In this document: positions 9,085-36,604 of the stretch, in pieces
Numbering within the stretch: the stretch's first letter is position 1
Layout: the number at the start of each line of letters is the position of its first letter
IMG/VR virus record: IMGVR_UViG_3300009163_000025
Location: 1-64,000 of that record
DNA length: 64,000 bases
DNA from: a virus
Direction: 5' to 3' (one strand)
Translations under genes and position numbers: made by a program
The notes under the pieces: generated by a model
Databases searched by the model: none
What the model was told of the DNA's origin: nothing
The model's input: only the letters and a program-made list of their open reading frames with translations

Positions 9085-9569
9085 GTTATTGCTTCTCCAT
9101 TTTCATCTACCTCTATCCATGTGTGATCACCTAGATATTTTACTCTAGTTATGTAGTCATAGTCAATAGGTTTCCCACAACTCCAGTCATTTGGACCCAT
9201 TGCTACCAATCGTGTAAGTGTTTTTCTGTTGTCCCAAACTAACCAGTAACAATGTCCATTGCTTAAAATGAATTGATACTCTGCCGAATGAACTGCATCG
9301 GTAATTTCTAATCTTCTTTTAATTTGTTCTGCTTGTTTTTGTAGGACATTAACTAAGTCCATGATTCTGTTATACTCTTGCTGTGCATGTAGCCTAGCAA
9401 TGTTAATCATGATATCTTTTTGTTTAGTTACTGGAACTAAATCAAACTTTGGACCTCCAGCCTCGGTAGGATATTCGCTTACATTACGATTGAAAAATGG
9501 AACAACTAATTCACCAATCTTTATGTCAAAACTATCTCTACCTTTTGCTGAATTATTTTCCTCTGACAT
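9081..9569 (-). CDS. DUF2452 family protein
   Basis: 162 aa. The pattern YPTEAGGPKFDLVPV, then HAQQEYNRIMDLVNVLQKQAEQIKRRLEI and a C-terminal NGHCYWLVWDN..LVAMGPNDW matches DUF2452 proteins of bacteria and T4-like phages. The middle is a predicted coiled coil. Function unknown. It overlaps the next gene by 4 nt and the upstream epimerase by 17 nt. Confidence 0.75.
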   Translation of the reverse strand: MSEENNSAKGRDSFDIKIGELVVPFFNRNVSEYPTEAGGPKFDLVPVTKQKDIMINIARLHAQQEYNRIMDLVNVLQKQAEQIKRRLEITDAVHSAEYQFILSNGHCYWLVWDNRKTLTRLVAMGPNDWSCGKPIDYDYITRVKYLGDHTWIEVDENGEAIT

Positions 9570-10521
9570 TAAAATTAATCCACCGATAGGTTTCTTTCAG
9601 TCCTTCTTTCAGATTTTGGCTTGGGCGCCAATTTAATTTTTCTTCTATTAACTCATTATTACTGTTACGCCCACGCACACCTGTTGGACCATCAATGTGT
9701 TTCTTGCGAATTGTTTTACCTGCAATCTGTGCAACAAGATCAACTGTATCATTAATGCTAATCATTTGATCTGCACCAATGTTAACTGGACCGTGAAACG
9801 TTTCGCTATTCATCAAGTGTCTAACACCTTCAATGCAATCATCAATGTATAGAAAACTTCTAGTCTGTTCACCATCACCCCAAATTTCAATTTCATCGCC
9901 ATCATTTGCTTTTGCAATCTTTCTGCAAATGGCAGCCGGAAACTTCTCTTTACCTCCTTCCCATGTACCATATGGACCAAAGATATTATGAAATCTAGCA
10001 ACTTTGTTTTGCATACCATGTTGACGATTGTATGCGTGAAACAATCTTTCGGAGAATAACTTCTCCCATCCATATTCAGAATCGGGATGTGCTGGATATG
10101 CACTTGATTCTCTGCAATCAGGATTTACATTTGATGATTGTAGTTCTTCATTGTATACACATGCGCTACTGCTGAAGAATACTTTTTTGATCTGCATTTC
10201 TTTGCATCTATGAAGTACATTCAAATTAATTGTTGCGCTATTGTGCATTACATCTGCATCATATAAATTCGTATTGATATAACCTGCACCACCCATATCG
10301 GCAGCCAGTTGATATACTTCATCGAAATGTATATCATCGATAACTCTTCGCACATCAGATTGTGAAGTTAAATCTGCAAGTTGAAAATCATCTGCGTGAC
10401 TGTATTCATGTTCATGCAGTTTTTTATCTACGCCACGAACCCAATAGCCTTCTGATTTCAAACGCTTAACCATGTGACCGCCAATAAAGCCACCTGCGCC
10501 TAGTACTAATGCAGTTTTCAT
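9553..10521 (-). CDS. NAD-dependent epimerase, GDP-mannose 3,5-epimerase-like
   Basis: 322 aa extended SDR. GAGGFIGG (8-15) binds NAD; SSSACVY (117-123) and YGWEK (Tyr150, Lys154) form the catalytic set. Cys121 and the Lys in GGKEKFPAA correspond to the acid/base Cys and Lys described for plant GDP-mannose 3,5-epimerase. The downstream GDGEQTRSFLYIDDCIEG also fits. With Gmd (14825-15856) it implies a GDP-linked sugar pathway. Product: GDP-L-galactose or a related epimer. Confidence 0.85.
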   Translation of the reverse strand: MKTALVLGAGGFIGGHMVKRLKSEGYWVRGVDKKLHEHEYSHADDFQLADLTSQSDVRRVIDDIHFDEVYQLAADMGGAGYINTNLYDADVMHNSATINLNVLHRCKEMQIKKVFFSSSACVYNEELQSSNVNPDCRESSAYPAHPDSEYGWEKLFSERLFHAYNRQHGMQNKVARFHNIFGPYGTWEGGKEKFPAAICRKIAKANDGDEIEIWGDGEQTRSFLYIDDCIEGVRHLMNSETFHGPVNIGADQMISINDTVDLVAQIAGKTIRKKHIDGPTGVRGRNSNNELIEEKLNWRPSQNLKEGLKETYRWINFNVRGK

Positions 10522-11444
10522 TTGTCTAGTAATCCTTCATACAATGTCAATAATTCATTTGGATTCCAAGCATCATAGAATTCTTGGAATGGTTCGATAC
10601 CACCAGCAACAATATCTTTAATTGATGTTTTTGTTAAATCATTAAACTCTTTACGTGTATGAGATAAGAACGTAGAATCATTAACACCAAAAGGTTTCTT
10701 TGATGCTAACGCACGATCTACTGATCCACTCACACCAGGAACGTTAGGTGTCTTATACCAATACAGATTAATGTCGTTTTGATTTAACCACGTAATCAAA
10801 TCTTTCTTATTAAAGAATTCTTGAGTCACATTAATTTGAACATTACTCTTAGCAAGTTTTCTACATGCACGTTCTAATGAATTTGAAAGCCCACCGCTTG
10901 GATCAACATAAGCACCATTTGCTAAGTGAAGATTTAAAATAACATCTTCGCTAAACTGTTCGTTTATTAAACCAATGATTTGTTCTAGATTTTTTGTTAC
11001 GTTACTGATACCGCTTGTGCCAATCTTTAATACACCATTAGGTTTTGAATATTGAATGTTATCGTAGTATGTGATTGGAGGAACGCCAGCGTATTCATCA
11101 CCTGATGTTTCTTTTCTAGGGTCAGTAAAGATATAAGAACTAACTCCAGTAAATTTATTAACATGTTCATGTCCAACAATTGCTAACTGTTTAATCTGCG
11201 TTAAATTTCCAATTGGTCTTGTTACACCATTGTTAAGCCAAGCCAACGTAGAAGGATGATGATTGTATATTACTGCATAGGGAGAAGTTTCGTTAACATA
11301 GTTATTGAAATGGTCACTTGAACCTGTTGCAAAAAATTCAAAATCATATCTCTTAGAAGTTTTAAGAATTTCAAATACTGAATCTGCATATTGAAATATG
11401 CCACATTCTTTAGTTGGTCCTGTGACCAAGATTACTTTTTTCAT
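10518..11444 (-). CDS. Glycosyltransferase-like protein
   Basis: 308 aa. Starts KKVILVTGPTKECGIFQYA and has a two-half layout with GVLKIGTSGISNVTKNLEQII opening the second half, then VDRALASKKPFGV near the C-terminus, as in GT-B enzymes. ATGA overlaps with both neighbours place it in the sugar operon. Specific activity unknown. Confidence 0.55.
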   Translation of the reverse strand: MKKVILVTGPTKECGIFQYADSVFEILKTSKRYDFEFFATGSSDHFNNYVNETSPYAVIYNHHPSTLAWLNNGVTRPIGNLTQIKQLAIVGHEHVNKFTGVSSYIFTDPRKETSGDEYAGVPPITYYDNIQYSKPNGVLKIGTSGISNVTKNLEQIIGLINEQFSEDVILNLHLANGAYVDPSGGLSNSLERACRKLAKSNVQINVTQEFFNKKDLITWLNQNDINLYWYKTPNVPGVSGSVDRALASKKPFGVNDSTFLSHTRKEFNDLTKTSIKDIVAGGIEPFQEFYDAWNPNELLTLYEGLLDK

Positions 11445-12361
11445 AATATTTGTTTAGTTGGTTTTCTATTAGATATGTATGTGGGTTTCAAGATCAAATC
11501 TGATATGATTCTAATTGCAACTTGATCGTCTATTGTATCACTAAAATATGAGTTTGTCAAATACTCACCTTCACCCATCAAGCAATCACGCATCTTATGG
11601 CTAAAGCACATGAAGGTTTGTTCTGGATTGTTCATGTTTGTTTTAGTGTGTGCATATGTGAATGGACCACTATTCTTGCCAACAATAAGTTTAGCAAATT
11701 GACTGATGTATCCAATCTGATTTAGATTGCCTGTTGGAGCACCAAAAATACTATCGGTACAGATTAAATTATTTTTAGTGATTCCAATGTCATGTGTGAT
11801 TAAAAATGCGTAGTCTGGAAAACTAGATGATAGCGAATCAATGATATTTTTCATATCACCCATGCTACTCTGTTCGCTTTGCTGAACACCATTACAAATG
11901 AGAATTAAATTCTTTGGAACAATTGTTCTCAGATATGAGTCACATTCACTCAAATCAAAACGATACCAATCAATCTTTGGTAGATAGAAGAAGTAATCAC
12001 CCCTCATTTCAAGTTCTAATGCATTGAAAATTTCTTTCCACATCGTATGAAGACAATGAAAATTAGCATGATCTTTTTCTGCTAAGTGTTTACCAATCCA
12101 ACAACCAACCCAAGTATTGATGTACAACGTATTAGGTTCATTCTGTGAAACTGCTAAAGGCACAAAGGTGCCAATAGCAGGAATCTCGTTAAGTGTTACG
12201 TGCTTACAATTTAAATCCGAAACAATGTTCGGATGATTGTTGTGTGCATATAAGAATTCAACATTAGGGAAACGGCTAATGATATCACGAACATATTCTT
12301 TGTTTATGAAACAGTCGCCGTTTCTCCATTGATTGAAGAAAATGATCTTAGTGAAATTCAT
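11441..12361 (-). CDS. Possible glycosyltransferase, GT9-like fold
   Basis: 306 aa. Starts TKIIFFNQWRNGDCFINKEYVRDII. The second half has KNLILICNGVQQSEQ and GKNSGPFTYAHT, reminiscent of heptosyltransferase-type (GT9) donor sites. No Cys-rich or membrane segments. It overlaps neighbours by 4 nt in the sugar operon. Family assignment is tentative. Confidence 0.45.
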   Translation of the reverse strand: MNFTKIIFFNQWRNGDCFINKEYVRDIISRFPNVEFLYAHNNHPNIVSDLNCKHVTLNEIPAIGTFVPLAVSQNEPNTLYINTWVGCWIGKHLAEKDHANFHCLHTMWKEIFNALELEMRGDYFFYLPKIDWYRFDLSECDSYLRTIVPKNLILICNGVQQSEQSSMGDMKNIIDSLSSSFPDYAFLITHDIGITKNNLICTDSIFGAPTGNLNQIGYISQFAKLIVGKNSGPFTYAHTKTNMNNPEQTFMCFSHKMRDCLMGEGEYLTNSYFSDTIDDQVAIRIISDLILKPTYISNRKPTKQIL

Positions 12362-13581
12362 TTCGAAATAATTTCAAAGATTGGACATGGAACAATGAAT
12401 GAACCGCCCGCATCTAAGAATGCTTTTTCTCTTGTTTGAAATTCGCTAATGAAGTGCCATGGAAGAACCAAAGCATAATCAGGATTTGCTTTACGCATTT
12501 CTTCTTCGCTGATAATTGGAATGTTTGTTCCAATTGTTTTGTAACCAAACTTGTAAGGGCTACGTTCTGCAATAGCATCAATGTGAGTACCATCTAAACC
12601 AAAGTACTGTAGCAAAGTATTGCCTTTAGTGCTTGCGCCATAACCATAAACACTTTTACCTGAAGATTTTGCTTCTTCAATGAATGTAAGAACATCATTC
12701 TTCAAATCGTCAAGTCGAACTTTGAATGCATCCCAAATCAAAGGATTTGAAATATCGATAACAGTATTTTCATATTCAAGAATACTATTCACACGATAGT
12801 CGCACACATCACGCAATGGGGATGTACCAAAACTCGCAACGTTTGCTGTATATTTTTGGAAGTAAACTCTGAAACTACCACCATTCGTATCATTCAAACT
12901 GCAATCAACAAGATTGAATCCATGCTGAGAAAACAACTTACTGATACTCTTTAAATCATAATAGTAAACGTGTTCGTGACAGATATTATCAAATGCCAAT
13001 TGATTAATCATCAAAGGTGTGTAACTCATTTGCAAAACAGCAATCCCGTCATCATCAAGAATATCATACATGTCTTGTACGAATGGATGTGGATTGTCTA
13101 AGTCATAAAACATTGCAATGCAAGTGATGACCTTTGCTTTTTTATCTGCAAACTTTGTTTTCTTCCATGCATCTTTGCTAAAGTAATCTTGTACGACAGT
13201 AGCAACTTTACTGCTTTCTGCATAGAACGAATCATCGCACGGATCAATACCAACTTTATTAATATTGTCTGGTACTGCTTTCAATAGAGTACCATCGTTA
13301 CATGCAATGTCAAGCCAAATGTCATCATCTTTCAACTTAACTCTGGATGTGATTTCTTTAACAATGCCTTGAAGTTCAAGTGTCATGCTAGTATTGATTG
13401 CGCTACGATACCAATACTTACCCCACATTGTGGATGCTGGTGCAACATCTTTCAATCGTGGTGCGCCCAACTCTTCGTCAAGATACAAATCAAGACTGTA
13501 CTTTTTACGTCCAGCCATTTCGCTATCATCTTTAATAAAATCGCTTACGTAGTGATCGCCAAGTTCAAGTAGTTTTTTCAT
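12358..13581 (-). CDS. SAM-dependent C-methyltransferase (deoxysugar type)
   Basis: 407 aa from the ATG at 13581, which has GAGG upstream and sits just after the previous stop. SAM-binding motif WLDIACNDGTLL is near residue 85, followed by NICHEHVYYY. The C-terminal domain SGKSVYGYGASTKGNTLLQYFGL is typical of sugar C-methyltransferases (Methyltransf_14 part). The N-terminal four-Cys zinc site usual in this family is missing. It probably C-methylates a 4-keto deoxysugar nucleotide such as the Gmd product. Confidence 0.8.
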   Translation of the reverse strand: MKKLLELGDHYVSDFIKDDSEMAGRKKYSLDLYLDEELGAPRLKDVAPASTMWGKYWYRSAINTSMTLELQGIVKEITSRVKLKDDDIWLDIACNDGTLLKAVPDNINKVGIDPCDDSFYAESSKVATVVQDYFSKDAWKKTKFADKKAKVITCIAMFYDLDNPHPFVQDMYDILDDDGIAVLQMSYTPLMINQLAFDNICHEHVYYYDLKSISKLFSQHGFNLVDCSLNDTNGGSFRVYFQKYTANVASFGTSPLRDVCDYRVNSILEYENTVIDISNPLIWDAFKVRLDDLKNDVLTFIEEAKSSGKSVYGYGASTKGNTLLQYFGLDGTHIDAIAERSPYKFGYKTIGTNIPIISEEEMRKANPDYALVLPWHFISEFQTREKAFLDAGGSFIVPCPIFEIISK

Positions 13582-13582
13582 A

Positions 13583-13960
13583 TTATTCCTCATGAGATTT
13601 TTCTTCAACCAATTCCGAATTGCAAAGAATGTTTATTTCTTTTTTGATTCGGCTTCGTTCATCGTTTGTTTTATAAATTTTTCTTGCAGTATCAATAAAA
13701 GGTTCTTTGAAATTTAATTCTTTTTCATATCGCCTAATATCTTCTTCAAGATGCCACAATGCATAGTTCACCTTCAACAAATCTTGATATTGATTTAAAA
13801 TTTGACTGTAGTAATGTATATATTCGGGTAAAGAAGTAAGAACGTCATATTCTTTTTGAACGTTCTTTAATTTAGATGCATCCTTAATCTCAAGTGTCTT
13901 GATTTTAAGAATGGTAATTTTGTCTATAAGTTCGCCAATGCTTGCTGGTATGAATATCAT
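13583..13960 (-). CDS. DUF6165-like protein
   Basis: 125 aa. PASIGELIDKITILKIKTLEI followed by KLKNVQKEYDVL matches small proteins (DUF6165) found beside glycosyltransferases in polysaccharide clusters. All-helical and charged; function unknown. Overlaps the upstream gene by 4 nt (ATGA). Confidence 0.65.
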   Translation of the reverse strand: MIFIPASIGELIDKITILKIKTLEIKDASKLKNVQKEYDVLTSLPEYIHYYSQILNQYQDLLKVNYALWHLEEDIRRYEKELNFKEPFIDTARKIYKTNDERSRIKKEINILCNSELVEEKSHEE

Positions 13961-14838
13961 TTTCTTTCAATGTCCTCTTCAATGCAATTTTCGCCATATT
14001 GAATTTCAATAACCCTCAACGGCTCATCTGTTTCATTGCAAAGTTTGTGCCATTGTTCTTTACTAATATGTAGACTGTCAAATTTATTGTAAGTCCCAAC
14101 TAAGTCCATATCTGTGCCAGCATTTAGTGTGTATACTGTAGCGGTACCTTCAGCAACAAACCAATGTTCTGCACGATCTTTATGTCGTTGCATACTCAAA
14201 CAAGTTTTAGCACCAACAGTCAATTCTTTAACTTTGATTTCTTTACCTTGTTCATGTAGCACTCTGTAGTAACCCCATGCTCTGCTAGTCTTAGGTGCTT
14301 TCCACTCTTCAAGAATCCATGAAGATGAATTCATTTTGTTATCACCACCAACAGAGAATACAAATTCTAAATTTTCTTTGTATCGTATATCATCAAGCAA
14401 ACTCATTTCAGGAATGTTTTCTGCTGTTCGATCTCCACCATTTGCAAAAATAATCTTTGCACCAGGAAATGTTTGAGTCGCTTGCTTGATTGCATTGATA
14501 GAATTGTTTTCGTCATCATTAAATTCGATAACGTAATCTACCATTTCTAAATTCTTAATCAACTGAAAACGTTCATCCCAAGTATAGAACGAACGTCCTT
14601 TTTTTCTTTTCAACCAAGAATCAGAATTGATACCAACAACAAGTGTATCACCCAATGCTTTAGCCGCTTTGAAGTATGCAAGATGCCCTGAGTGAAGTGG
14701 ATCAAATCCACCTGTCACTAGAACAACTTTTTTCTCAGCAGATTTAACTAAGACTCTGAAGTTTGGCGGTGTACCAAAGTCTCTAGCATAAACTGTTTTA
14801 CCGCCATCAGGACTTTCGTAAATTTTACGTGTTTCCAT
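13957..14838 (-). CDS. Nucleotidyltransferase-cupin fusion (sugar activation)
   Basis: 293 aa. Residues 36-180 form a cytidylyltransferase-type domain with VTGGFDPLHSGH (HxGH at 49-52) and NSSSWILEEW, as in RfaE2/TagD-like enzymes. Residues about 185-285 form a cupin like the C-terminal phosphomannose isomerase domain of ManC: WGYYRVL, KVKELTV, SMQRHKDRAEHWFVAEG. The fusion suggests one protein both activates and isomerises or binds a sugar phosphate for the cassette. Substrate not deducible. Confidence 0.75.
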   Translation of the reverse strand: METRKIYESPDGGKTVYARDFGTPPNFRVLVKSAEKKVVLVTGGFDPLHSGHLAYFKAAKALGDTLVVGINSDSWLKRKKGRSFYTWDERFQLIKNLEMVDYVIEFNDDENNSINAIKQATQTFPGAKIIFANGGDRTAENIPEMSLLDDIRYKENLEFVFSVGGDNKMNSSSWILEEWKAPKTSRAWGYYRVLHEQGKEIKVKELTVGAKTCLSMQRHKDRAEHWFVAEGTATVYTLNAGTDMDLVGTYNKFDSLHISKEQWHKLCNETDEPLRVIEIQYGENCIEEDIERK

Positions 14839-15856
14839 TTTGTTGAATCCTCATTTCACTTTCGCACATATCAAACACCAAGTCTTTGAATGTATACTCT
14901 GGTGTCCAACCCAAAACAGTTTTTGCTTTAGTGCAATCACCAAAGATCGTTGGCACTTCTGCTGGACGATAAAAGTCTTTGTTCACTTTGATGATAGTCT
15001 TACCCGTAGACTTATTGATGCCGACTTCATCTAAACCTTCACCACGCCATTCAATTTCAAATCCAAGATATGTCGCAACATCATTACAGAAGTCTTTTAC
15101 TGAATGCTCTTCACCACTAGAGATTGCATAGTCATCTGGTTTGTCTTGTTGCAGAATCAACCACATCGCACGAACGTAATCTTTAGCATGTCCCCAATCA
15201 CGCCTTGCTGTTAGATTTCCTAGTTCTAGAATATCTTGCAAACCGAGATGAGTGCGAATCATACCTAGTACAATTTTACGTGTAACAAATTCAGGACCTC
15301 TACGTGGGCTTTCGTGATTAAACAAAATACCATTGCATGAGAATAGATTAAAACTTTCACGATAGTTTACTGTGATCCAATAACCATACATCTTAGCAAC
15401 AGCATAAGGTGAACGTGGATAGAATGGAGTGTTTTCTGTTTGTGGAGTTTCTTTTACCTTACCATACAACTCACTAGTTGATGCTTGATAAAATTTGACT
15501 TGCTTTTCTTTGGCCAATCGTTTGACTGCTTCAAGCAATTTGAGTACGCCAAGAGCATTAACATCACCCGTATATGTTGGGCAATCATAACTTACGCTAA
15601 CGTGGCTTTGTGCGCCTAAGTTATAAACTTCATCTGGTCGCACTTTGATAACAATACTTTCAAGATTAGCCGCATCTGTTAGATCGCTATAGTGAAATGT
15701 AATTCGATGTTTGATATGGTTGATGTTTGCAGTATTGTTTCCTGTACTTGATCGGCGTACAAGACCATGCACATCATAACCTTTTTCAAGTAGAAGTTCT
15801 GCTAGGTAACTTCCATCTTGTCCTGTAATACCCGTAATCAAGGCAGTTTTTTGCAT
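14825..15856 (-). CDS. gmd: GDP-mannose 4,6-dehydratase
   Basis: 343 aa, the usual Gmd length. ITGITGQDGSYL (7-18) binds NADP; TSELYG (127-132), Tyr151 and Lys155 are catalytic; RRGPEFVTRK and NLTARRDWGHAKDYV are Gmd hallmarks. It converts GDP-mannose to GDP-4-keto-6-deoxymannose, the entry point to fucose, rhamnose, perosamine or colitose type sugars. First gene of the cassette. It lies immediately downstream of the tmRNA coding piece, so it may share that transcript. Confidence 0.95.
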   Translation of the reverse strand: MQKTALITGITGQDGSYLAELLLEKGYDVHGLVRRSSTGNNTANINHIKHRITFHYSDLTDAANLESIVIKVRPDEVYNLGAQSHVSVSYDCPTYTGDVNALGVLKLLEAVKRLAKEKQVKFYQASTSELYGKVKETPQTENTPFYPRSPYAVAKMYGYWITVNYRESFNLFSCNGILFNHESPRRGPEFVTRKIVLGMIRTHLGLQDILELGNLTARRDWGHAKDYVRAMWLILQQDKPDDYAISSGEEHSVKDFCNDVATYLGFEIEWRGEGLDEVGINKSTGKTIIKVNKDFYRPAEVPTIFGDCTKAKTVLGWTPEYTFKDLVFDMCESEMRIQQNGNT

Positions 15857-15887: not shown

Positions 15888-16216
15888 GTGACAGGTTATT
15901 CTGTTACGAGGAAACCTGTCGAAACCCTAAGCCGAGTTTAGGCGGCTAATGCGAAACGTGAGTCGTTTGCGTTTACTTTTTTTGCTTGATTAACGGTCAT
16001 CGCCTACCGTGCTGTCCACTCTGTTACTTGTTGCCCTGTCGAATCTAGATCAAGCCCATCATAAAAAGAATAAAAAAAACCAAAATAATAATACTCACTA
16101 CCCCGCAGGTATATTGGTATTTTACTTCAGGATCCATATAGTCTCCTTATGGTGGACTTGGGGGGATTCGCACCCCCGTCCAGGTCACTTTTCTCTTTGC
16201 TTCATACAGCAATAAC
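15888..16216 (-). ncRNA. ssrA: Circularly permuted (two-piece) tmRNA
   Basis: The acceptor piece comes first on the minus strand: T-arm GGGGG/CCCCC (16177-16161), acceptor strand CAAGTCC (16160-16154), discriminator A and CCA (16152-16150). After about 90 nt of spacer the coding piece starts at 16057 with GGGCTTG, which pairs with CAAGTCC (one G-U), then the tmRNA signature GATTCGACAGGG. The tag frame follows at 15970-15938, then stems ending with an 8-bp hairpin (15920-15891). 3' half before 5' half is the permuted layout. Outer ends are approximate. Confidence 0.9.
15938..15970 (-). other. tmRNA tag reading frame (ANDSRFALAA)
   Basis: GCA resume codon at 15970, then codons for ANDSRFALAA and TAA. 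This matches the bacterial proteolysis tag pattern AND...ALAA, so tagged proteins should go to host ClpXP-type proteases. No SmpB gene is seen in this window, so host SmpB would be needed. Confidence 0.9.
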
Positions 16217-16420
16217 TTACTCTCTACCCCATTTGATTTTCAACCAAATTCGTTCATGTATATAGTAGTCAACACTTAGCATAATATGCAATGCAGTTGC
16301 AAATCCAGTAGCATTACCTATATCACCGGTAAACAAATAAGTCCAAAAAATTGTAAACGCCCATGCAGTAACACGATATGTTAACATTCTCACTACGGTT
16401 CTTTTCTTTGTTTCAATCAT
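16217..16420 (-). CDS. DUF2061-like membrane protein
   Basis: 67 aa from the ATG at 16420 (MIETKKRTVVRMLTYRVTAWAFT). The pattern KR..V..L.YR..A...T, a transmembrane segment and DYYIHERIWLKIKWGRE match the DUF2061 small membrane protein family. Function unknown. The stop lies immediately before the tmRNA acceptor piece. Confidence 0.75.
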   Translation of the reverse strand: MIETKKRTVVRMLTYRVTAWAFTIFWTYLFTGDIGNATGFATALHIMLSVDYYIHERIWLKIKWGRE

Positions 16421-16447
16421 TATATCATTCTTTAATAAATTTTGCAA
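16419..16447 (-). promoter_or_regulatory. Candidate promoter upstream of the tmRNA
   Basis: TTGCAA (16447-16442), 17-nt spacer, TATAAT (16424-16419) on the minus strand. The -10 overlaps the DUF2061 start codon, so the transcript would mainly serve the tmRNA precursor. Confidence 0.4.
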
Positions 16448-29603: not shown

Positions 29604-29677
29604 TGGCATCCCGCCAGGGATTCGAACCCCGATCAACGGTTTTGGAGACCGCTATGTTGCCTTTACACTAGCGAGAT
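29604..29677 (-). tRNA. tRNA-Trp (CCA)
   Basis: Acceptor ATCTCGC/GCGGGAT, discriminator G, encoded CCA; anticodon loop CTCCAAA on a 5-bp stem; T-loop TTCGAAT. Like all tRNAs here, the 3' CCA is encoded. Confidence 0.95.
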
Positions 29678-29679
29678 AT

Positions 29680-29754
29680 TGGTGGGCTTAAGTGGATTCG
29701 AACCACTACCTTATCAATTATGAGTTGACGGCACTACCTTTATGCTATAAGCCC
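29680..29754 (-). tRNA. tRNA with CAT anticodon (Met, or Ile if lysidine-modified)
   Basis: Acceptor GGGCTTA/TAAGCCC, discriminator A, encoded CCA; anticodon loop CTCATAA; T-loop TTCGAAT. The initiator-type GGG/CCC anticodon stem is absent. Met versus tRNA-Ile2 cannot be settled by eye. Confidence 0.9.
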
Positions 29755-29757
29755 AAT

Positions 29758-29842
29758 TGGTATGAGTAGCCGGAATCGAACCGGCATGCCTTGCGGCGAG
29801 AGATTTTAAGTCTCTTGCGTCTACCTATTTCGCCATACTCAC
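29758..29842 (-). tRNA. tRNA-Leu (TAA)
   Basis: Acceptor GTGAGTA/TACTCAT, encoded CCA; anticodon loop CTTAAAA; long variable arm CGCCGCAAGGC as in class II tRNAs. Its 5' end abuts the stop codon of the halogenase-like gene. Confidence 0.95.
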
Positions 29843-31111
29843 TCAACTACCATCATTTGCGATTTGAAGCCTCAACTCTTGCAGTTGGTGTAAGGTAATT
29901 TTATCGAAAAATCCATAGCCGAAGTGTGTATCAGAATCCATGATTTTAAAATTCTTTTCGTTGAAAACAAAACTTAGCGATCTGTAGTAATTTCTTGAGT
30001 CACCAAAACGCATTGCATGAATGAAATCATGAAACGCATCACTTTCTTCTAAGATTTTTTGCGCTGGTTCTTTAATTCCATTCCAGAATGGTGTATCGTG
30101 AATACTGCCATCACGATACATGTATGCGATAACAGTAGCAACATTATTAATTTCAGCAGATATTACCGCATTTGCTCCTTCTTTTGATCCACCATATGCA
30201 ATATACCCAACAATTGCACGATTGATTGTGTCATATAAGTGTAGTGAATTTGCAAATAGCGGTTCGAAAAATACAGCACGATTACCATTCTTAAAAATTC
30301 TTTTACCAATAATTTGTTTAGCACGATATGAATTGAATTTGTATTCAATATTTTGCAACTCTTCTACAGGAACACCAATCTCTTTAGAGAAATTTTGAAG
30401 TGCTTCTTCTTTCGTTGTTATTGTATCATTAAAAAGATATCCATAACTTTTTCTATTGGTTAATGGCACACCAAACATCCATCCATCCGGTGTCGCTCTA
30501 TGTAATGTATATTTCCATCCTTCTTTATCATCCTCTTGAACATTATGAACAAGGCAATGATTGACTGTTTGAACGGGCATCAAACTGTAATCTTCATATG
30601 ATTTTGGAAACCCACGACAATCTACAACAAAATCGTAATTGTGTTCTTCACCATCGATAACCATAGTGACTTTATCATCATGCTCCGTCATTGAATCGAC
30701 TGTACCAACTACTTCTTTAAATTTTTCACGCCAAACTTTTTTGAGTCTAGGTATTGCAAATTCTCTAAGTTTAAATGTATTAAAATGAATCGCCGCACTA
30801 CCATTAATTAATGGATTGTGAAAGTCGTGTTCACGCCAATTTTCAAATTTTGTTGTTAGTTTTAATGTTGCGTCTAATTCTTCTAAATTATCATACAAAT
30901 TAAATCGTGTACCATATTCAAGCGCAGTAATGAATGTTGGATTTGTACTCTCACCAATTCCTACAATAGGAATAGATGGATCATGAATTGACACAACCTC
31001 AAATTCAAGCCCATCAAGCCAAGCAAGAAAAAAAGATAATGACTGAATGCCAGCACTACCAGTTCCAATAACTGCAACTTTTTTCTTTATGATTTCTTTT
31101 ACACTATGCAT
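29843..31111 (-). CDS. FAD-dependent halogenase-like protein (divergent)
   Basis: 422 aa. FAD motif is GTGSAG (16-21) in place of GxGxxGW. GIGESTNP (51-58) matches the flavin loop; TLKLTTKFENW puts Lys84 at the catalytic Lys position; FFEPLFANSL keeps the second catalytic Glu. The WxWxIP motif is GWMFGVPL. It is the first gene downstream of two oxygenase-like genes. It probably acts on an aromatic substrate with a reduced-flavin partner, but halogenation is not certain. Confidence 0.75.
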   Translation of the reverse strand: MHSVKEIIKKKVAVIGTGSAGIQSLSFFLAWLDGLEFEVVSIHDPSIPIVGIGESTNPTFITALEYGTRFNLYDNLEELDATLKLTTKFENWREHDFHNPLINGSAAIHFNTFKLREFAIPRLKKVWREKFKEVVGTVDSMTEHDDKVTMVIDGEEHNYDFVVDCRGFPKSYEDYSLMPVQTVNHCLVHNVQEDDKEGWKYTLHRATPDGWMFGVPLTNRKSYGYLFNDTITTKEEALQNFSKEIGVPVEELQNIEYKFNSYRAKQIIGKRIFKNGNRAVFFEPLFANSLHLYDTINRAIVGYIAYGGSKEGANAVISAEINNVATVIAYMYRDGSIHDTPFWNGIKEPAQKILEESDAFHDFIHAMRFGDSRNYYRSLSFVFNEKNFKIMDSDTHFGYGFFDKITLHQLQELRLQIANDGS

Positions 31112-31136
31112 TATTTCTCCTTAACGAATTTTATAA

Positions 31137-31742
31137 TTATTCAACTTTTTTCATCGTATTAAAACTAATAATCACTCTATTCTTAGTTTGATTTTGTTCA
31201 TAGTTTGACCCATGCTTTAACCAACTAGGAAAGAATAAAATATCTCCCGCACCAACTTTAATAGTCCAAAGATCGACAGTATACATTGTTTTGATTTTAG
31301 TTGGTGTTAAACATTTTATTTGATTCAATGGCGCATCAAATGTTATACCTGTACTATCCTCATCAACATTAATGTATATAGCGGCTGATGCCCAACTATC
31401 TGGATGATAATGTTGTTTTAAAACGCTACCTTCATGCTGTATTGCATACCATGAATTTGTGATAGCCAATCGATACATTCCAAATTTTTCTGCGTATTCA
31501 TTAATGCCATTTTCAAGAAATTCATACAGCCCATGACAACTTGGAATATTTTTTTCTAATTCTTGAATGAATAATGTTTCTTCAAGATAACTTGTCCTAA
31601 CGTTTCCAGTTAAAGTGTCGTGTGAAGTGCCGTGTGGTTTTGCCATTATATATTCAAATATATCTTTTCGGCGCTGTTCTTCAATGACACCTCTGTGCCA
31701 TCTAACCAAAGTTGGGAATATATCAAAGTCTATTGTTTCCAT
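31137..31742 (-). CDS. Putative 2OG-Fe(II) oxygenase (2OG-FeII_Oxy_5 type)
   Basis: 201 aa. SWYAIQHEGSVLKQHYHPDSWASAAIYI holds the His-x-His/Asp iron region; GAGDILFFPSWLKHGSNYEQNQTKNRVIISFN carries the distal His and the Arg that binds 2-oxoglutarate. The plan matches phage 2OG-FeII_Oxy_5 proteins. Two nt before it lies the DUF6445-type gene, 26 nt after it the halogenase. Substrate unknown. Confidence 0.8.
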   Translation of the reverse strand: METIDFDIFPTLVRWHRGVIEEQRRKDIFEYIMAKPHGTSHDTLTGNVRTSYLEETLFIQELEKNIPSCHGLYEFLENGINEYAEKFGMYRLAITNSWYAIQHEGSVLKQHYHPDSWASAAIYINVDEDSTGITFDAPLNQIKCLTPTKIKTMYTVDLWTIKVGAGDILFFPSWLKHGSNYEQNQTKNRVIISFNTMKKVE

Positions 31743-31743
31743 A

Positions 31744-32265
31744 TCAAACGAAAAATGTAAATGTTAATCGGGAATCTTCAATTGTAGTTCCAAAAAATCT
31801 TTGTGGACGATGAAGTATATTCTTATATAGCACAAGTCGGTTAAATTTATTTTCAACTACAATTTCTTTACCATTTGAAACCAAAATCGTTCCACTATTA
31901 GGTTCAGGTGTTTTATTTAGATAGATCACACCAGCACAAGAACATTGATCTGTGTGCCACCAATGCCGAACTGGTATATCATAATTAGCAAATTCTGGAA
32001 TGATTGCAAGATATGCACTTGCCTTTGTGTAATCGAATTTAACTGACTTTGATACTATTTGTTTCAATGTATCAATTTGAGTCTTACTGATATCCGTAGA
32101 ACGATATCCACGCCACATTGCAGGCGGCCGTGAAGGTTCATTGGAGTCAATTTGAACTCCATCAATAATCCTGTCTTCAAATGTATAATAAGTTGCAATC
32201 CTTGAAAGTGCGACTAATTGATCTGGATCAGATAAAATGTTATCAACTACAATATAATCATTCAT
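31744..32265 (-). CDS. DUF6445-type oxygenase-like protein
   Basis: 173 aa. NDYIVVDNILSDPDQLVALS start, RHWWHTDQCSCAGVIYLNKTPEPNSGT (HxD iron pair), FNRLVLYKNILHRPQRFFG and DSRLTFTFF. Paralog of 23497-24144. DUF6445 proteins are neighbours of tryptophan-halogenase-like and 2OG enzymes in bacterial TonB-receptor loci, matching the arrangement here. Confidence 0.72.
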   Translation of the reverse strand: MNDYIVVDNILSDPDQLVALSRIATYYTFEDRIIDGVQIDSNEPSRPPAMWRGYRSTDISKTQIDTLKQIVSKSVKFDYTKASAYLAIIPEFANYDIPVRHWWHTDQCSCAGVIYLNKTPEPNSGTILVSNGKEIVVENKFNRLVLYKNILHRPQRFFGTTIEDSRLTFTFFV

Positions 32266-32270
32266 AATTA

Positions 32271-32345
32271 TGGCCCGACCTGAGGGAATCGAACCCCCAT
32301 AATGACTTTAGAAGAATCATGTCCTATCCGTTGAACGAAGGTCGG
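32271..32345 (-). tRNA. tRNA-Arg (TCT)
   Basis: Acceptor CCGACCT/AGGTCGG, discriminator G, CCA; anticodon loop CTTCTAA; T-loop TTCGATT. Reads AGA/AGG. Confidence 0.94.
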
Positions 32346-32352
32346 AATAAAT

Positions 32353-32426
32353 TGGAGCGGGATATGAGAATCGAACTCATAACTGAAGTTTGGAAGACTG
32401 CCGTTTTACCACTAAACTAATCCCGC
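32353..32426 (-). tRNA. tRNA-Gly (TCC)
   Basis: Acceptor GCGGGAT/ATCCCGC, discriminator T, CCA; anticodon loop CTTCCAA; T-loop TTCGATT. Confidence 0.95.
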
Positions 32427-32429
32427 AAT

Positions 32430-32504
32430 TGGTGGAGATGGAGAGAATCGAACTCTCAATTTCTGGTTGCAAACCAGATGTGTTCCCATTAGCACTACAC
32501 CCCC
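32430..32504 (-). tRNA. tRNA-Ala (TGC)
   Basis: Acceptor GGGGGTG/CATCTCC, discriminator A, CCA; anticodon stem TCTGG/CCAGA with loop TTTGCAA. Begins directly after the oxygenase stop at 32505. Confidence 0.95.
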
Positions 32505-33086
32505 TTAAATATCTTTCTTAACGTAATGACAATTAATTGCAATACTCAATCTATCTTCATCACTACGATTTTCATTTACATAATGCATTAGCCAACTAGG
32601 AAAAATCAAAAGTGTTCCTGCGTTAGGTGCTACAACAAATATACTGCTGTTGAATTCATTATAACTACTAATAATTTCGTCGGAATAAGAATGCAATGCG
32701 GCCGCATTTGGTGTTGTAAATTCTATAGTTCCAAATTCTTTTTTTCCTATTGGATAATAAACCGCACTAAAAAAAGAAGTTGGATGTGTATGAGGTTTGC
32801 TTGTTACATAACAATTATTTATTGTACACCAAGCCTCTCTAATTTTTAAAAAATATTCATCACTAAATCCATATCGTTTGTATACTTCATTAAATTTATT
32901 TTCAACATGATCGAATAAGTCTTTGATAACACCACTAACATTTTCTTGTCTTATCCAAGATTGATGATCCGACATACGATTTTTTTCTGTGATAAGATTT
33001 TTACGACAAAAATTAACAATTGACTCATTGTCCAATGATAATTGATCCACCGCTAAAAATGTTGTAAATATGTTCGTATATTGCAT
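32505..33086 (-). CDS. Putative 2OG-Fe(II) oxygenase (2OG-FeII_Oxy_5 type)
   Basis: 193 aa. INNCYVTSKPHTHPTSFFSAVYYP gives the His-x-His iron region; NAGTLLIFPSWLMHYVNENRSDEDRLSIAINCHYV carries the distal His and cosubstrate Arg. Paralog of 31137-31742 with the same FPSWLxH motif. Lies between tRNA-Pro and tRNA-Ala, so its mRNA is probably cut out by tRNA processing. Substrate unknown. Confidence 0.8.
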   Translation of the reverse strand: MQYTNIFTTFLAVDQLSLDNESIVNFCRKNLITEKNRMSDHQSWIRQENVSGVIKDLFDHVENKFNEVYKRYGFSDEYFLKIREAWCTINNCYVTSKPHTHPTSFFSAVYYPIGKKEFGTIEFTTPNAAALHSYSDEIISSYNEFNSSIFVVAPNAGTLLIFPSWLMHYVNENRSDEDRLSIAINCHYVKKDI

Positions 33087-33106
33087 AAATTCCCCACAAA
33101 ATAAAT

Positions 33107-33180
33107 TGGTCTCGATGGCAAGAATCGAACTTGCGCCTCATGGTCCCAAACCACGAATGATACCATTTCACCACACCGAG
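33107..33180 (-). tRNA. tRNA-Pro (TGG)
   Basis: Acceptor CTCGGTG/CATCGAG, discriminator A, CCA; anticodon loop TTTGGGA. The promoter at 33189 would start transcription at or next to its 5' end. Confidence 0.95.
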
Positions 33181-33188
33181 TTTTCTCT

Positions 33189-33217
33189 ATTATACATCAA
33201 TCTGCTATCAATGTCAA
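33189..33217 (-). promoter_or_regulatory. Promoter of tRNA-Pro and downstream oxygenase operon
   Basis: TTGACA (33217-33212), 17-nt spacer, TATAAT (33194-33189): full consensus. The -35 overlaps the stop of the D-Ala-D-Ala peptidase gene. Confidence 0.8.
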
Positions 33218-33957
33218 AGCAAATTGATTATATTCTTTACCAGACTGTCTACGTCATTTCTTGTTTTGCCGCCAAGAACAACAATTGCAAATCTGTCTTC
33301 TCTTTTATGTACAATCATCACAACGCATTTACCAGCAAGATTTGTTGTTCCGGTCTTGGACATTTCAATCACATCAAATTTAGATAACAAATTTTTATTT
33401 GTGCTATTGATTTCAATCAATCGCTCTCTATTCTTTTTATCATACACATGAAGATCATATTCACGCAATGATGCAATTTCTTTTATCTTCTCAATGTTAT
33501 ACGCATAATTCAGTAGTGTAACTAACTCAACTGCATTACTCACATTCTTTGGACTCAATCCAGATGGGTCATCAAACTTTGTATTAACCATTCCTAACAT
33601 TTCTGCTTTACGATTCATTTGATATACGAACCATGCTTTACCATGATTGCTATCTGCTAATGCATCGGCTGCCTTGTTGTCACTTTTAACTAATAACAAA
33701 TTCAACAATTCTTCTCTAGTAAATTTTTTGCTAGAGAAAAACATTCCCCTATATGTAACTTTCTCATCCAATGGCAGTCCACTCTCCATGATAACAATAG
33801 CAGTCATCAATTTCGTAATACTTGCAATTGGTTTTACATCATAAATTTCAGAGTCAACTATTGGAATATCTTTTGTTATGTTATGTGCGTAAACTGTTAT
33901 TGCATTTGCATTCATACACATAAAAACTGTGAGTATGCAATATAGTATTTTTTTCAT
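33214..33957 (-). CDS. D-alanyl-D-alanine carboxypeptidase/endopeptidase (S11)
   Basis: 247 aa. Signal peptide ending NANA (residue 19). Penicillin-binding motifs in order: SITK (Ser46, Lys49), SDN (92-94) and KTGTT (near 200), plus NLAGKCVVMIVH. Size resembles PBP7/DacA-type catalytic domains without the C-terminal anchor. It would trim or cleave peptidoglycan peptides in the periplasm. Flanked by tRNA-Val and tRNA-Pro. Confidence 0.88.
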   Translation of the reverse strand: MKKILYCILTVFMCMNANAITVYAHNITKDIPIVDSEIYDVKPIASITKLMTAIVIMESGLPLDEKVTYRGMFFSSKKFTREELLNLLLVKSDNKAADALADSNHGKAWFVYQMNRKAEMLGMVNTKFDDPSGLSPKNVSNAVELVTLLNYAYNIEKIKEIASLREYDLHVYDKKNRERLIEINSTNKNLLSKFDVIEMSKTGTTNLAGKCVVMIVHKREDRFAIVVLGGKTRNDVDSLVKNIINLL

Positions 33958-33967
33958 ATTTACTTTC

Positions 33968-34042
33968 TGGTACCTTGTGACAGGATCGAACTGCCGACCT
34001 TCTCCGTGTAAAGGAGTTACTCTACCGCTGAGTTAACAAGGC
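33968..34042 (-). tRNA. tRNA-Val (TAC)
   Basis: Acceptor GCCTTGT/ACAAGGT, discriminator A, CCA; anticodon loop TTTACAC; T-loop TTCGATC. Confidence 0.93.
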
Positions 34043-34047
34043 GTTAT

Positions 34048-34121
34048 TGGTGCCCCTTGACAGAATCGAACTGCCGTAACCTGATTACAAAACAGGCGTA
34101 ATACCATTATACTAAAGGGGC
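34048..34121 (-). tRNA. tRNA-Thr (TGT)
   Basis: Acceptor GCCCCTT/AAGGGGC, discriminator A, CCA; anticodon loop TTTGTAA, with a T-T mismatch closing the stem. Confidence 0.92.
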
Positions 34122-34140
34122 TCATACTTTATATATCTAT

Positions 34141-34214
34141 TGGCAGAGGGTACAAGAATCGAACTTGTGACAACGGAATCAAAATCCGTGGTTATACCAT
34201 TTAACTAACCCCCA
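34141..34214 (-). tRNA. tRNA-Gln (TTG)
   Basis: Acceptor TGGGGGT/ACCCTCT with a mismatched first pair, as tolerated in tRNA-Gln; discriminator G, CCA; anticodon stem ACGGA/TCCGT, loop TTTTGAT. Confidence 0.92.
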
Positions 34215-34219
34215 ACATT

Positions 34220-34309
34220 TGGTGGAAGCGGTGAGATTCGAACTCACGGACCCTTTCGGATCGACAGTTTTCAAGACTGTTGCCATAAACCTGACTCGAC
34301 CACGCTTCC
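34220..34309 (-). tRNA. tRNA-Ser (TGA)
   Basis: Acceptor GGAAGCG/CGCTTCC, CCA; anticodon loop CTTGAAA; long variable arm CGATCCGAAAGGGTC. Confidence 0.95.
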
Positions 34310-34315
34310 ATTAAT

Positions 34316-34390
34316 TGGCACCCAATGAAGGAATCAAACCTCCAACTCCTCGTTCGTAGCAAGGTGTGATATTCATTTCACTAATCGGGT
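34316..34390 (-). tRNA. tRNA-Arg (ACG)
   Basis: Acceptor ACCCGAT/ATTGGGT, discriminator G, CCA; anticodon loop CTACGAA. The A34 would need host TadA deamination to read all CGN wobble codons. Confidence 0.92.
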
Positions 34391-34393
34391 AAT

Positions 34394-34476
34394 TGGTGCC
34401 CCAAGAGAGACTTGAACTCTCACGCACTAGGCACTGGCTTCTAAGACCAGCGTGTCTACCATTCCACCATCGGGGC
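34394..34476 (-). tRNA. tRNA-Leu (TAG)
   Basis: Acceptor GCCCCGA/TTGGGGC, CCA; anticodon loop CTTAGAA; long variable arm TGCCTAGTGCG. Confidence 0.95.
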
Positions 34477-34484
34477 AATATACT

Positions 34485-34558
34485 TGGTACCCAGTAGAGG
34501 TATCGATCCTCTGATTAACGCTTATCAAGCGTTTGTTATACCATTTAACTAACCGGGC
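34485..34558 (-). tRNA. tRNA-Ile (GAT)
   Basis: Acceptor GCCCGGT/ACTGGGT, discriminator A, CCA; anticodon stem AACGC/GCGTT, loop TTGATAA. Confidence 0.94.
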
Positions 34559-34563
34559 ATATT

Positions 34564-34639
34564 TGGTACCGACTTCAGGTTACGATCCTGATTCTCTGGT
34601 TTTTCAAACCAGCGCAATGACCACACTTGCTCAATCGGC
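34564..34639 (-). tRNA. tRNA-Phe (GAA)
   Basis: Acceptor GCCGATT/AGTCGGT, discriminator A, CCA; anticodon stem CTGGT/ACCAG, loop TTGAAAA. Its first 9 nt overlap the 3' end of the phosphoesterase gene. Confidence 0.93.
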
Positions 34640-35215
34640 AGAACCATTTCCGTTCTTAAATCCTACTACACCACCTTCTTCTTTGATGCGTTTGATAACG
34701 TCTTCAAAAAGAATTGGCGTGTAATCTGTTTGTTCTACACATACACAATAGTATCTTGGATCGGGAACTGGAACACCATACTTACCTACTGGTTGCATCA
34801 TCACTCTGTTAGAATGTAGATGCCCATGAATGTTCACACCGAATCTTCCAAGACTGTCTACGTGAATAGGAATGTGAGAAAGAATCATTCCGTTCATTAC
34901 ATGATAAGCACGTAACTCTCTAAAATATTTTCTATACTCATCATCACGAAAAATATCGTGATTACCACGAATTAAAACTTTGTCACCATTTAGCCTACTC
35001 ATAATGCCTAGACTTTTACGATTGATAACAACATCGCCTAGATGATAAACTTTATCGTTAGGGCGAACTCTATCATTCCAGCGCCTAACCATTTCTTCAT
35101 CCATCTCATCTGCATTATCCCATGGACGTAGTTTTGTCACACCATCATTACGCATGAATCTACACACACCAGTGTGACCAAAGTGTGTGTCACTAACTAA
35201 AAATACTGATGGCAT
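34631..35215 (-). CDS. Metallophosphoesterase
   Basis: 194 aa. SDTHFGH (8-14), HLGDVV, RGNHDIF, LSHIPIH and NIHGHLHSN are the five metal-site motifs of calcineurin-like phosphoesterases of the phage/YfcE-like type. The last three codons lie inside tRNA-Phe. Substrate unknown. Confidence 0.88.
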   Translation of the reverse strand: MPSVFLVSDTHFGHTGVCRFMRNDGVTKLRPWDNADEMDEEMVRRWNDRVRPNDKVYHLGDVVINRKSLGIMSRLNGDKVLIRGNHDIFRDDEYRKYFRELRAYHVMNGMILSHIPIHVDSLGRFGVNIHGHLHSNRVMMQPVGKYGVPVPDPRYYCVCVEQTDYTPILFEDVIKRIKEEGGVVGFKNGNGSAD

Positions 35216-35229
35216 ATATTACTCCTTTG

Positions 35230-35304
35230 TGGGGTGTCTAATGAGGATCGAACTCATACGGAGGGAATCACAATCCCTAATGCTACCACTACATCATAGA
35301 CACC
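35230..35304 (-). tRNA. tRNA-His (GTG)
   Basis: Encodes the extra G(-1) opposite C73, the histidine identity feature; acceptor GTGTCTA/TAGACAC, CCA; anticodon stem AGGGA/TCCCT, loop TTGTGAT. Confidence 0.95.
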
Positions 35305-35312
35305 ATAAAAAT

Positions 35313-35387
35313 TGGTAGGGGCACCGAGAATCGAACTCGGATTAATAGGTTAAAAGCCTACTACTTTAGCCGTTAAGTTATGCCCCC
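35313..35387 (-). tRNA. tRNA-Lys (TTT)
   Basis: Acceptor GGGGGCA/TGCCCCT, discriminator A, CCA; anticodon loop CTTTTAA. Confidence 0.95.
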
Positions 35388-35391
35388 ATAT

Positions 35392-35466
35392 TGGTGGTTC
35401 AGGTTGGATTCGAGCCAACGACCTACTCCGTATGAAGGAGTTGCACTACCGCTGTGCTACTGAACC
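35392..35466 (-). tRNA. Second tRNA with CAT anticodon (Met or Ile2)
   Basis: Acceptor GGTTCAG/CTGAACC, CCA; anticodon stem ACTCC/GGAGT, loop TTCATAC; T-loop CTCGAAT. Differs strongly from the first CAT tRNA, so one is likely elongator Met and the other lysidine-type Ile. Confidence 0.9.
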
Positions 35467-35469
35467 GAT

Positions 35470-35555
35470 TGGTGGAGAATCAGGGATTCGAACCCCGTAT
35501 ACCTTAAGGTGACAGATTTACAGTCTGCTGAAGTCGCCAATGCTTCTCATTCTCC
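35470..35555 (-). tRNA. tRNA-Tyr (GTA)
   Basis: Acceptor GGAGAAT/ATTCTCC, CCA; anticodon loop CTGTAAA; long variable arm CACCTTAAGGTAT, as in bacterial tRNA-Tyr. Confidence 0.95.
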
Positions 35556-35561
35556 GTTGTT

Positions 35562-35640
35562 TGGCTCCGAGTAAGAGAATCGAACTCTTCTAACCAGTGA
35601 TTAACAGTCACGCCCATGCACCTTGCTCGGGTTTCTCGGA
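35562..35640 (-). tRNA. tRNA-Asn (GTT)
   Basis: Acceptor TCCGAGA/ACTCGGA (one mismatch), discriminator G, CCA; anticodon loop CTGTTAA; T-loop TTCGATT. The left boundary of the gene-free RNA-like region. Confidence 0.88.
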
Positions 35641-35930
35641 ATAAATGCTTTCTCTCTGCGGCGGTAATTATAGTACTAATGGACTCTGAGGACGTCTGTT
35701 TTACCAGACACTCATACCACGTACCCTCCACCCGCTCCCCGACCAGAGAAAACTCTCGTATTGCCAACGCTACTTTGGTAAGAGTAGTACCACACTTGAG
35801 TAACGAACTCACTTCACTTCCTGCGTGTCACAGTAGCCAGACGTTACTCCAGCGGGTTTGGTTGCAGGTAGTGGTAACGCTCCACTCTCGCTATGGCTTA
35901 TGAGACCATGCGGGTCCTTGACCTACCTGC
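35641..35930 (-). ncRNA. Candidate structured non-coding RNA
   Basis: About 290 nt with no convincing gene and visibly higher GC than its surroundings. Stems: GCAGGTAG/CTACCTGC (35864-35871 with 35923-35930), GAGTAACG/CGTTACTC (35798-35805 with 35842-35849), TGGTA/TACCA (35776-35792), GTCTG/CAGAC (35694-35709) and AGAG/CTCT near 35745. It lies between tRNA-Asn and a gene. RNase P and tmRNA signatures were looked for and not found. Strand inferred from its neighbours. Confidence 0.5.
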
Positions 35931-35934
35931 GATA

Positions 35935-36390: not shown

Positions 36391-36414
36391 TTCTTAAAAT
36401 TATAAATCGTCATA

Positions 36415-36422
36415 TATTTATA
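36415..36422 (-). promoter_or_regulatory. T4-type late promoter
   Basis: TATAAATA on the minus strand, 25 nt before the ATG at 36390. Exact consensus at the right distance; would need late sigma plus gp33. Confidence 0.75.
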
Positions 36423-36429
36423 TAAAATC

Positions 36430-36505
36430 TGGCGGTCTTAGGGGGTAACGATCCCCACTCTTATGGCGTGACAAGCCATCGTGCGTCCATGAACACTTTA
36501 AGACC
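36430..36505 (-). tRNA. tRNA-Asp (GTC)
   Basis: Acceptor GGTCTTA/TAAGACC, discriminator G, CCA; anticodon stem ATGGC/GCCAT, loop TTGTCAC. Confidence 0.95.
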
Positions 36506-36510
36506 AATCT

Positions 36511-36598
36511 TGGCGGAGAGTATCAGATTCGAACTGATGCATCGCTTTCGCAATGACGGTTTAGCAAACCGCTGGTTTAACCACTCACCCAACTCTCC
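36511..36598 (-). tRNA. tRNA-Ser (GCT)
   Basis: Acceptor GGAGAGT/ACTCTCC, discriminator G, CCA; anticodon loop TTGCTAA; long variable arm CATTGCGAAAGCGATG. Confidence 0.95.
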
Positions 36599-36604
36599 TT
36601 TGTT

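What the first reader, a model, noticed from the sequence alone, without database searches (positions are those of the whole stretch)
15888..16216. Phage-encoded circularly permuted tmRNA with tag ANDSRFALAA
The CCA-ending acceptor piece precedes the coding piece on the minus strand. GGGCTTG at 16057 pairs with CAAGTCC at 16160, GATTCGAC follows, and the resume frame spells ANDSRFALAA. Permuted tmRNAs are known from alphaproteobacteria, cyanobacteria and one betaproteobacterial lineage. Phage copies are rare to my knowledge, and I do not know of a permuted one. It may free stalled ribosomes or tag host proteins late in infection.
Basis: partly seen in the sequence, partly recalled or inferred. 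Interest (0 to 1): 0.88.

Follow-up and report, generated by a model that had tools for sequence, protein, structure and literature searches.

The report
Hidden small gene inside phage tmRNA
This phage carries a known type of rearranged ribosome-rescue RNA gene, and the piece of its transcript that is normally thrown away also encodes a tiny membrane protein, an arrangement that recurs in many related phages and that I found nowhere described.

Summary
The tmRNA is real: RF04321 (permuted tmRNA) 132 bits, RF01850 (beta type) 116 bits, and ARAGORN calls it permuted with tag ANDSRFALAA.

What is new lies in the intervening segment (IVS, 16149-16058), which maturation discards. It carries AAGGAG directly after CCA, then ATG and a 30-codon frame, MDPEVKYQYTCGVVSIIILVFFILFMMGLI (16137-16045). 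Such minigenes recur in phage IVSs: 16 of 96 IVS clusters against 1.1 expected by shuffling. None was seen in 50 distinct betaproteobacterial IVSs. They evolve as coding sequence: substitutions at codon positions 1/2/3 are 72/34/122, and amino-acid changes 100 against 154 expected. Two minigene families have free-standing homologues in other phages.

The Shine-Dalgarno lies in a conserved helix that extends the acceptor stem (63 of 64 folds). That helix is weaker in minigene IVSs. I infer that the minigene is translated only before this helix closes, after which the RNA matures into tmRNA. Coding is well supported; the switch is inference.

The parts
16150..16211 (-). tmRNA acceptor (3' tRNA-like) piece with T-arm and encoded CCA; 5' end approximate
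   Evidence: RF04321 match begins at 16211; sequence
16058..16149 (-). Intervening segment (IVS), 92 nt, absent from mature two-piece tmRNA
   Evidence: lies between CCA and the acceptor 5' strand
16143..16148 (-). Shine-Dalgarno AAGGAG of the IVS minigene
   Evidence: sequence; near-constant position in the other minigene IVSs
16045..16137 (-). IVS minigene MDPEVKYQYTCGVVSIIILVFFILFMMGLI*, single-TM-like; its last codons and stop lie in the 5' piece because of a 2-nt difference from relatives
   Evidence: relatives L101, L102, L360, L372, L106, L109, L116, L236, L389; codon test for the window/L101/L360 cluster p=0.0045
16142..16149 (-). 5' strand of the helix that extends the acceptor stem; contains the Shine-Dalgarno
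   Evidence: fold; fixed register +n with -(n+4) across clusters
16062..16069 (-). 3' strand of that helix (TCTTTTTA), pairs with the Shine-Dalgarno
15890..16057 (-). tmRNA 5' tRNA-like and coding piece; 3' end approximate
16051..16057 (-). acceptor stem 5' strand GGGCTTG
   Evidence: pairs with CAAGTCC 16160-16154
15938..15970 (-). tag reading frame ANDSRFALAA*
15890..15920 (-). terminal hairpin GACAGGTT...AACCTGTC of the coding piece
   Evidence: sequence, fold; identical in L098

Best explanation
A phage-encoded, beta-type, circularly permuted tmRNA gene whose discarded intervening segment is itself a small protein gene. One transcript carries both. The minigene's Shine-Dalgarno emerges right after CCA; about 90 nt later its complement is transcribed and closes the helix that extends the acceptor stem, hiding the Shine-Dalgarno and allowing cleavage into the two tmRNA pieces. 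The likely order is therefore translation of a small, usually single-membrane-span peptide on nascent or unfolded precursor, then folding and maturation into tmRNA that works with host SmpB. Shown by sequence: the tmRNA, the minigene's recurrence, its coding evolution, and the pairing potential of its Shine-Dalgarno. Inferred: transcription, processing, translation, the order of events, and the peptide's function (possibly in the host envelope).
For: tmRNA. Minigene: strict Shine-Dalgarno+ATG+ORF in 16 of 96 IVS clusters from scans that did not select for it, against 1.10 (sd 1.0, max 4 of 200) after shuffling IVS interiors; 16 of the 20 clusters with an early Shine-Dalgarno-like motif and IVS of 60 nt or more have it. 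Codon-position substitutions 72/34/122, 100 amino-acid changes against 154 (minimum 136 of 1000), no stop where 9 were expected. Window cluster: 8 changes against 15.7, p=0.0045. Free-standing homologues of the L046/L061 minigene upstream of the tmRNA in L438, L453, L457, L474 and L033, and of the L051 minigene in L478. The Shine-Dalgarno is paired with the IVS 3' end in 63 of 64 distinct minigene IVSs. The helix is conserved in fixed register with many pair types in ORF-less IVSs, and is weaker in minigene IVSs (mean -5.5 against -8.1 kcal/mol, p=1.5e-6). At the same locus, phages with a 94.5%-identical neighbouring exonuclease (L098, L099) carry an unrelated, minigene-free IVS between conserved tmRNA halves.
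Against: No expression data. All minigene examples are metagenomic; none of the eight isolates read had one. The window copy has a 2-nt difference from L101/L360 that changes its last codons and moves the stop into the 5' piece, which might be a sequencing error in a T-run or the start of decay. The helix exists in all permuted tmRNAs, so pairing of the Shine-Dalgarno follows from its position and need not be regulatory; A/U- and G.U-rich stems are expected wherever AAGGA is placed in it.
Confidence: 0.75

Rival explanations
1. The minigene is real but has no regulatory link to tmRNA: the IVS is a tolerant place where small phage genes nest for compactness.
For: Many unrelated peptides occupy the site, 16 of 24 cluster representatives TM-like and the rest not; same-locus exchange with minigene-free IVSs; homologous genes exist outside the IVS.
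Against: The Shine-Dalgarno sits inside the conserved helix almost every time although the loop would offer open sites; weak, because scans 30-32 selected for that position.
Confidence: 0.45
2. The open frames are chance by-products of AT-rich, stem-constrained spacer RNA; only the tmRNA matters.
For: U-rich IVSs yield hydrophobic translations by composition, and the last F/L codons are dictated by the helix strand.
Against: Shuffles that keep the stem ends and dinucleotides give 1.1 instead of 16 clusters; codon-position and amino-acid tests; spurious GTG/TTG frames show no such signal; free-standing homologues; a PF09791 domain in another IVS family.
Confidence: 0.06
3. The excised IVS acts as a tiny mRNA. 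In window-like copies whose stop lies in the 5' piece, RNase P cleavage would remove the stop and leave a non-stop mRNA that the tmRNA itself would rescue.
For: The window stop lies 13 nt past the IVS end, as in L005, L012, L013 and L084.
Against: Many families use the TGA just before the 5' piece (offset -1), so it is not general; a released hairpin would still hide its Shine-Dalgarno.
Confidence: 0.05

Closest known systems
Permuted (two-piece) tmRNA in phages: Melnitz (PMC9004378); isolates Stenotrophomonas DLP_6 and Yut2, Pseudomonas UF_RH6, Xanthomonas Rb1, X1 and XacN1, Acinetobacter BUCT628, Alcaligenes QDWS595
   Same: Acceptor piece before coding piece, resume tag, phage genome
   Different: Melnitz has an alpha-related tmRNA with a glutamine riboswitch; in the eight isolates read here I saw no Shine-Dalgarno/ATG minigene in the IVS
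Betaproteobacterial permuted tmRNA (RF01850)
   Same: Overall structure and tag (ANDERFALAA and similar in hosts), and a helix that extends the acceptor stem
   Different: Bacterial IVSs in this sample are 18-49 nt with no minigene in 50 distinct sequences; the sample was limited by the scan pattern to short spacers
Permuted tmRNA with a tRNA-Ala gene in its IVS (PMC11915505)
   Same: A second gene nested in the discarded segment
   Different: A tRNA in one nominally archaeal genome; here a protein gene, recurrent and in phages
Homing-endonuclease genes in tmRNA group I introns (PMC11915505)
   Same: Protein gene inside a segment removed from tmRNA
   Different: Self-splicing introns there; here the processing spacer of a permuted gene, with peptides of about 19-52 residues not like endonucleases

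Membership tests
Permuted tmRNA (RF04321) | Covariance model match over the curated cut-off | tested here: met
   132 bits, cut-off 47
Permuted tmRNA (RF04321) | Acceptor piece precedes coding piece; 7-bp acceptor stem with G3.U70 | tested here: met
   GGGCTTG 16057-16051 with CAAGTCC 16160-16154, third pair G.U
Permuted tmRNA (RF04321) | Resume frame with a degron-like end and a stop | tested here: met
   ANDSRFALAA*
Permuted tmRNA (RF04321) | Two mature RNA pieces, alanine charging, SmpB dependence | not testable with these tools
   No SmpB gene found in the 88-kb record, so the host's would have to serve; the record may be a fragment
Beta-type tmRNA (RF01850) | Covariance model match over the curated cut-off | tested here: met
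   116.4 bits, cut-off 84; phages of gammaproteobacteria match it too, so it does not fix the host
Protein-coding gene (IVS minigene) | Ribosome-binding site, start codon and open frame beyond chance | tested here: met
   16 of 96 clusters against 1.1 by shuffling
Protein-coding gene (IVS minigene) | Purifying selection on the amino-acid sequence | tested here: met
   contaminated control resolved
Protein-coding gene (IVS minigene) | Translated product | not testable with these tools
   no expression data
Shine-Dalgarno-sequestering RNA switch | Conserved helix that hides the ribosome-binding site | tested here: met
   63 of 64 folds; fixed-register helix
Shine-Dalgarno-sequestering RNA switch | Alternative state and change of output | not testable with these tools
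   needs mutants and reporters

The most novel reading that the evidence does not exclude
In phages, the spacer of permuted tmRNA genes is a recurrent nesting site for small, mostly membrane-protein genes whose ribosome-binding site is built into the tmRNA's own extended acceptor helix, so that one transcript must choose between being a messenger for the peptide and becoming the ribosome-rescue RNA.
Probability: 0.35. Interest if true: 0.85.

Novelty: new variant of a known kind. Interest (0 to 1): 0.7.

Why it matters
A stretch of RNA treated as processing waste turns out to carry selected protein genes in many phages. If the two products exclude one another on each transcript, phages would have a simple link between translation and ribosome rescue. 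It also gives a cheap way to find overlooked small phage membrane proteins, because the site is fixed by tmRNA models, and it explains why ordinary annotation misses them: they overlap an RNA gene.

Tried and rejected
Novelty of the permuted phage tmRNA itself: rejected (PMC9004378; isolates). tblastn of the window minigene and of one other minigene peptide in the phage collection: no match, though short hydrophobic queries are weak. One search used a peptide to which I had added invented letters and should be ignored. A codon-degenerate scan for MDPEVKYQY in IMG/VR found only four contigs, all of them tmRNA loci already in hand. First ORF-less control for codon periodicity was itself periodic, 78/30/28; traced to one family whose IVS encodes a PF09791 domain. 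Without that family the counts are 31/22/20, not significant by my own chi-square estimate (about 0.24). Frames that read into the IVS from an ATG in the acceptor piece are not enriched as a class (13 against 16.8 by shuffling). PHROGs gave no convincing family for the minigenes. The whole-precursor fold is only mildly more stable than shuffles (z=-1.76). sigma-70 and terminator scans were uninformative. The first genome contigs pattern, with GATTCGAC, found nothing.

Full report
Observation. On the minus strand an acceptor piece ending in an encoded CCA (16152-16150) precedes a coding piece that starts at 16057. GGGCTTG pairs with CAAGTCC in seven positions with the G3.U70 wobble, GATTCGAC follows, and the resume frame gives ANDSRFALAA. 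ARAGORN calls a permuted tmRNA. Rfam gives RF04321 132 bits and RF01850 116 bits, far over their cut-offs. The window belongs to an 88,348-base IMG/VR record with T4-like genes: gp32-like single-strand binding protein, PhoH, ribonucleotide reductase, primase, thymidylate synthase; the gp32 is about 56% identical to those of cyanophages. No SmpB gene was found in the record, so the phage RNA would have to use the host's.

The tmRNA itself is not new. PMC9004378 describes a two-piece tmRNA in phage Melnitz and reports that 53 of 133 unique phage tmRNA structures are two-piece, 50 of them aquatic. PMC11915505 merged the permuted models into RF04321. One scan of viral contigs with a 19-base motif gave 86 loci, nearly all of which ARAGORN calls permuted; in all, ARAGORN called 364 permuted genes in the loci fetched, bacteria included. 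Eight named phages checked have RF04321 matches.

The spacer. Between CCA and the acceptor 5' strand lie 92 nt (16149-16058). They begin UAAGGAG, followed by AUG at 16137 and an open frame of 30 codons. Reading other phage spacers side by side showed the same plan again and again, with different peptides: Shine-Dalgarno just after CCA, ATG, a short frame, and a stop just before or just inside the 5' piece. For the tests I extracted permuted genes by a rule that requires at least six acceptor pairs and a T-loop motif; 327 loci passed.

Is it more than chance? In the viral loci from scans that did not ask for a Shine-Dalgarno or ATG there are 96 spacer clusters. Sixteen have the strict arrangement; shuffling only the interior, with dinucleotides and both stem ends kept, gives 1.10 on average and never more than 4 in 200 trials. 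Fifty distinct betaproteobacterial spacers have none, but these were found with a pattern limited to short spacers, so longer bacterial spacers remain unexamined.

Is it coding? Within families, substitutions fall 72/34/122 on codon positions 1/2/3, away from start and terminal helix; 100 amino acids change where 154 would under the same substitutions placed at random (minimum 136 of 1000), and no stop arises where 9 would. In the cluster of the window peptide, 8 amino-acid changes stand against 15.7 expected (p=0.0045). Two clusters of spurious GTG or TTG frames show no such signal. The ORF-less control first looked periodic; the cause was a family of 18 loci whose spacer encodes an Oxidored-like domain (PF09791, E=1.7e-11), in a frame whose only start codon is an ATG in the acceptor piece. 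That is a further coding spacer, with an unexplained start; without it the control is flat by my own arithmetic.

Kin of the peptides. Two minigenes have free-standing relatives. That of L046/L061 resembles a 37-residue gene lying a few hundred bases upstream of the tmRNA in L438, L453, L457 and L474, with relatives beside the tmRNA in L033 and L215; that of L051 resembles a longer ORF in L478. Small genes have thus moved into or out of the spacer. Sixteen of 24 cluster representatives look like a single membrane span. The window peptide has seven distinct aligned relatives or variants with invariant M1, E4, Y7 and C11; all copies found lie in tmRNA spacers.

Same place, different spacer. In many T4-like contigs the tmRNA lies beside the PD-(D/E)XK exonuclease gene, as in the window. 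L098 and L099, with exonuclease 94.5% identical to the window's, have a nearly identical acceptor piece and 3' half, but an unrelated spacer without the Shine-Dalgarno/ATG minigene. The minigene is an exchangeable part.

The helix. In all classes, position +n of the spacer pairs with -(n+4), which extends the acceptor stem by about ten pairs. In 77 ORF-less clusters nearly all positions pair through many pair types, far beyond shuffled partners. In 24 minigene clusters the pairs are kept, but the two Gs of the Shine-Dalgarno mostly face U; this helix is weaker, -5.5 against -8.1 kcal/mol (p=1.5e-6). In 63 of 64 distinct minigene spacers the Shine-Dalgarno is paired in the predicted fold.

How it most likely works. 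The Shine-Dalgarno leaves the polymerase before its partner. A ribosome that binds first can read the minigene; once the partner strand is made and free, the helix closes, the Shine-Dalgarno is hidden and the precursor can be cut into two-piece tmRNA. This order is inference from anatomy. The plain alternative, a nested gene without regulation, is nearly as likely. Peptide function is unknown; a role in the host envelope is a guess from the membrane-span pattern.

Caveats. All minigene loci are metagenomic. The window copy differs from L101 and L360 by two bases in a T-rich run, which changes its last residues and carries the frame into the 5' piece; this may be a sequencing error. Scans 30-32 selected for a Shine-Dalgarno near CCA, so frequencies come only from the other scans. 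In the papers held I found no report of a protein gene in this spacer; the founding papers on permuted tmRNA were not all available.

Noticed in passing
L026, L070, L132-L149 (18 loci): A 115-nt tmRNA spacer encodes an Oxidored-like domain (PF09791) with strong codon periodicity, but the only in-frame start is an ATG inside the acceptor piece; how it is started is unexplained.
   Followed up: partly
L005, L017, L026, L034 and others: ARAGORN predicts unusually long tags of 27-31 residues (ANVNKTVTVSGKN...ALAV; ANADTFDFSAMSFTGN...ALAA) in some viral permuted tmRNAs.
   Followed up: no
window 29604-36890 (-): 23 tRNA genes in one region of the phage record, interleaved with small ORFs.
   Followed up: no
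window 50742-52217 and 29843-31111 (-): Two tryptophan-halogenase-like proteins (PF04820) in one phage record.
   Followed up: no
window 9553-15856 (-): Sugar-nucleotide genes directly downstream of the tmRNA: GDP-mannose dehydratase, cytidylyltransferase with mannose-6-phosphate isomerase domain, C-methyltransferase, epimerase.
   Followed up: no
window 16217-16447 (-): A DUF2061 small membrane protein gene ends within a few bases of the tmRNA acceptor piece; L098 has a different small ORF in this position.
   Followed up: partly
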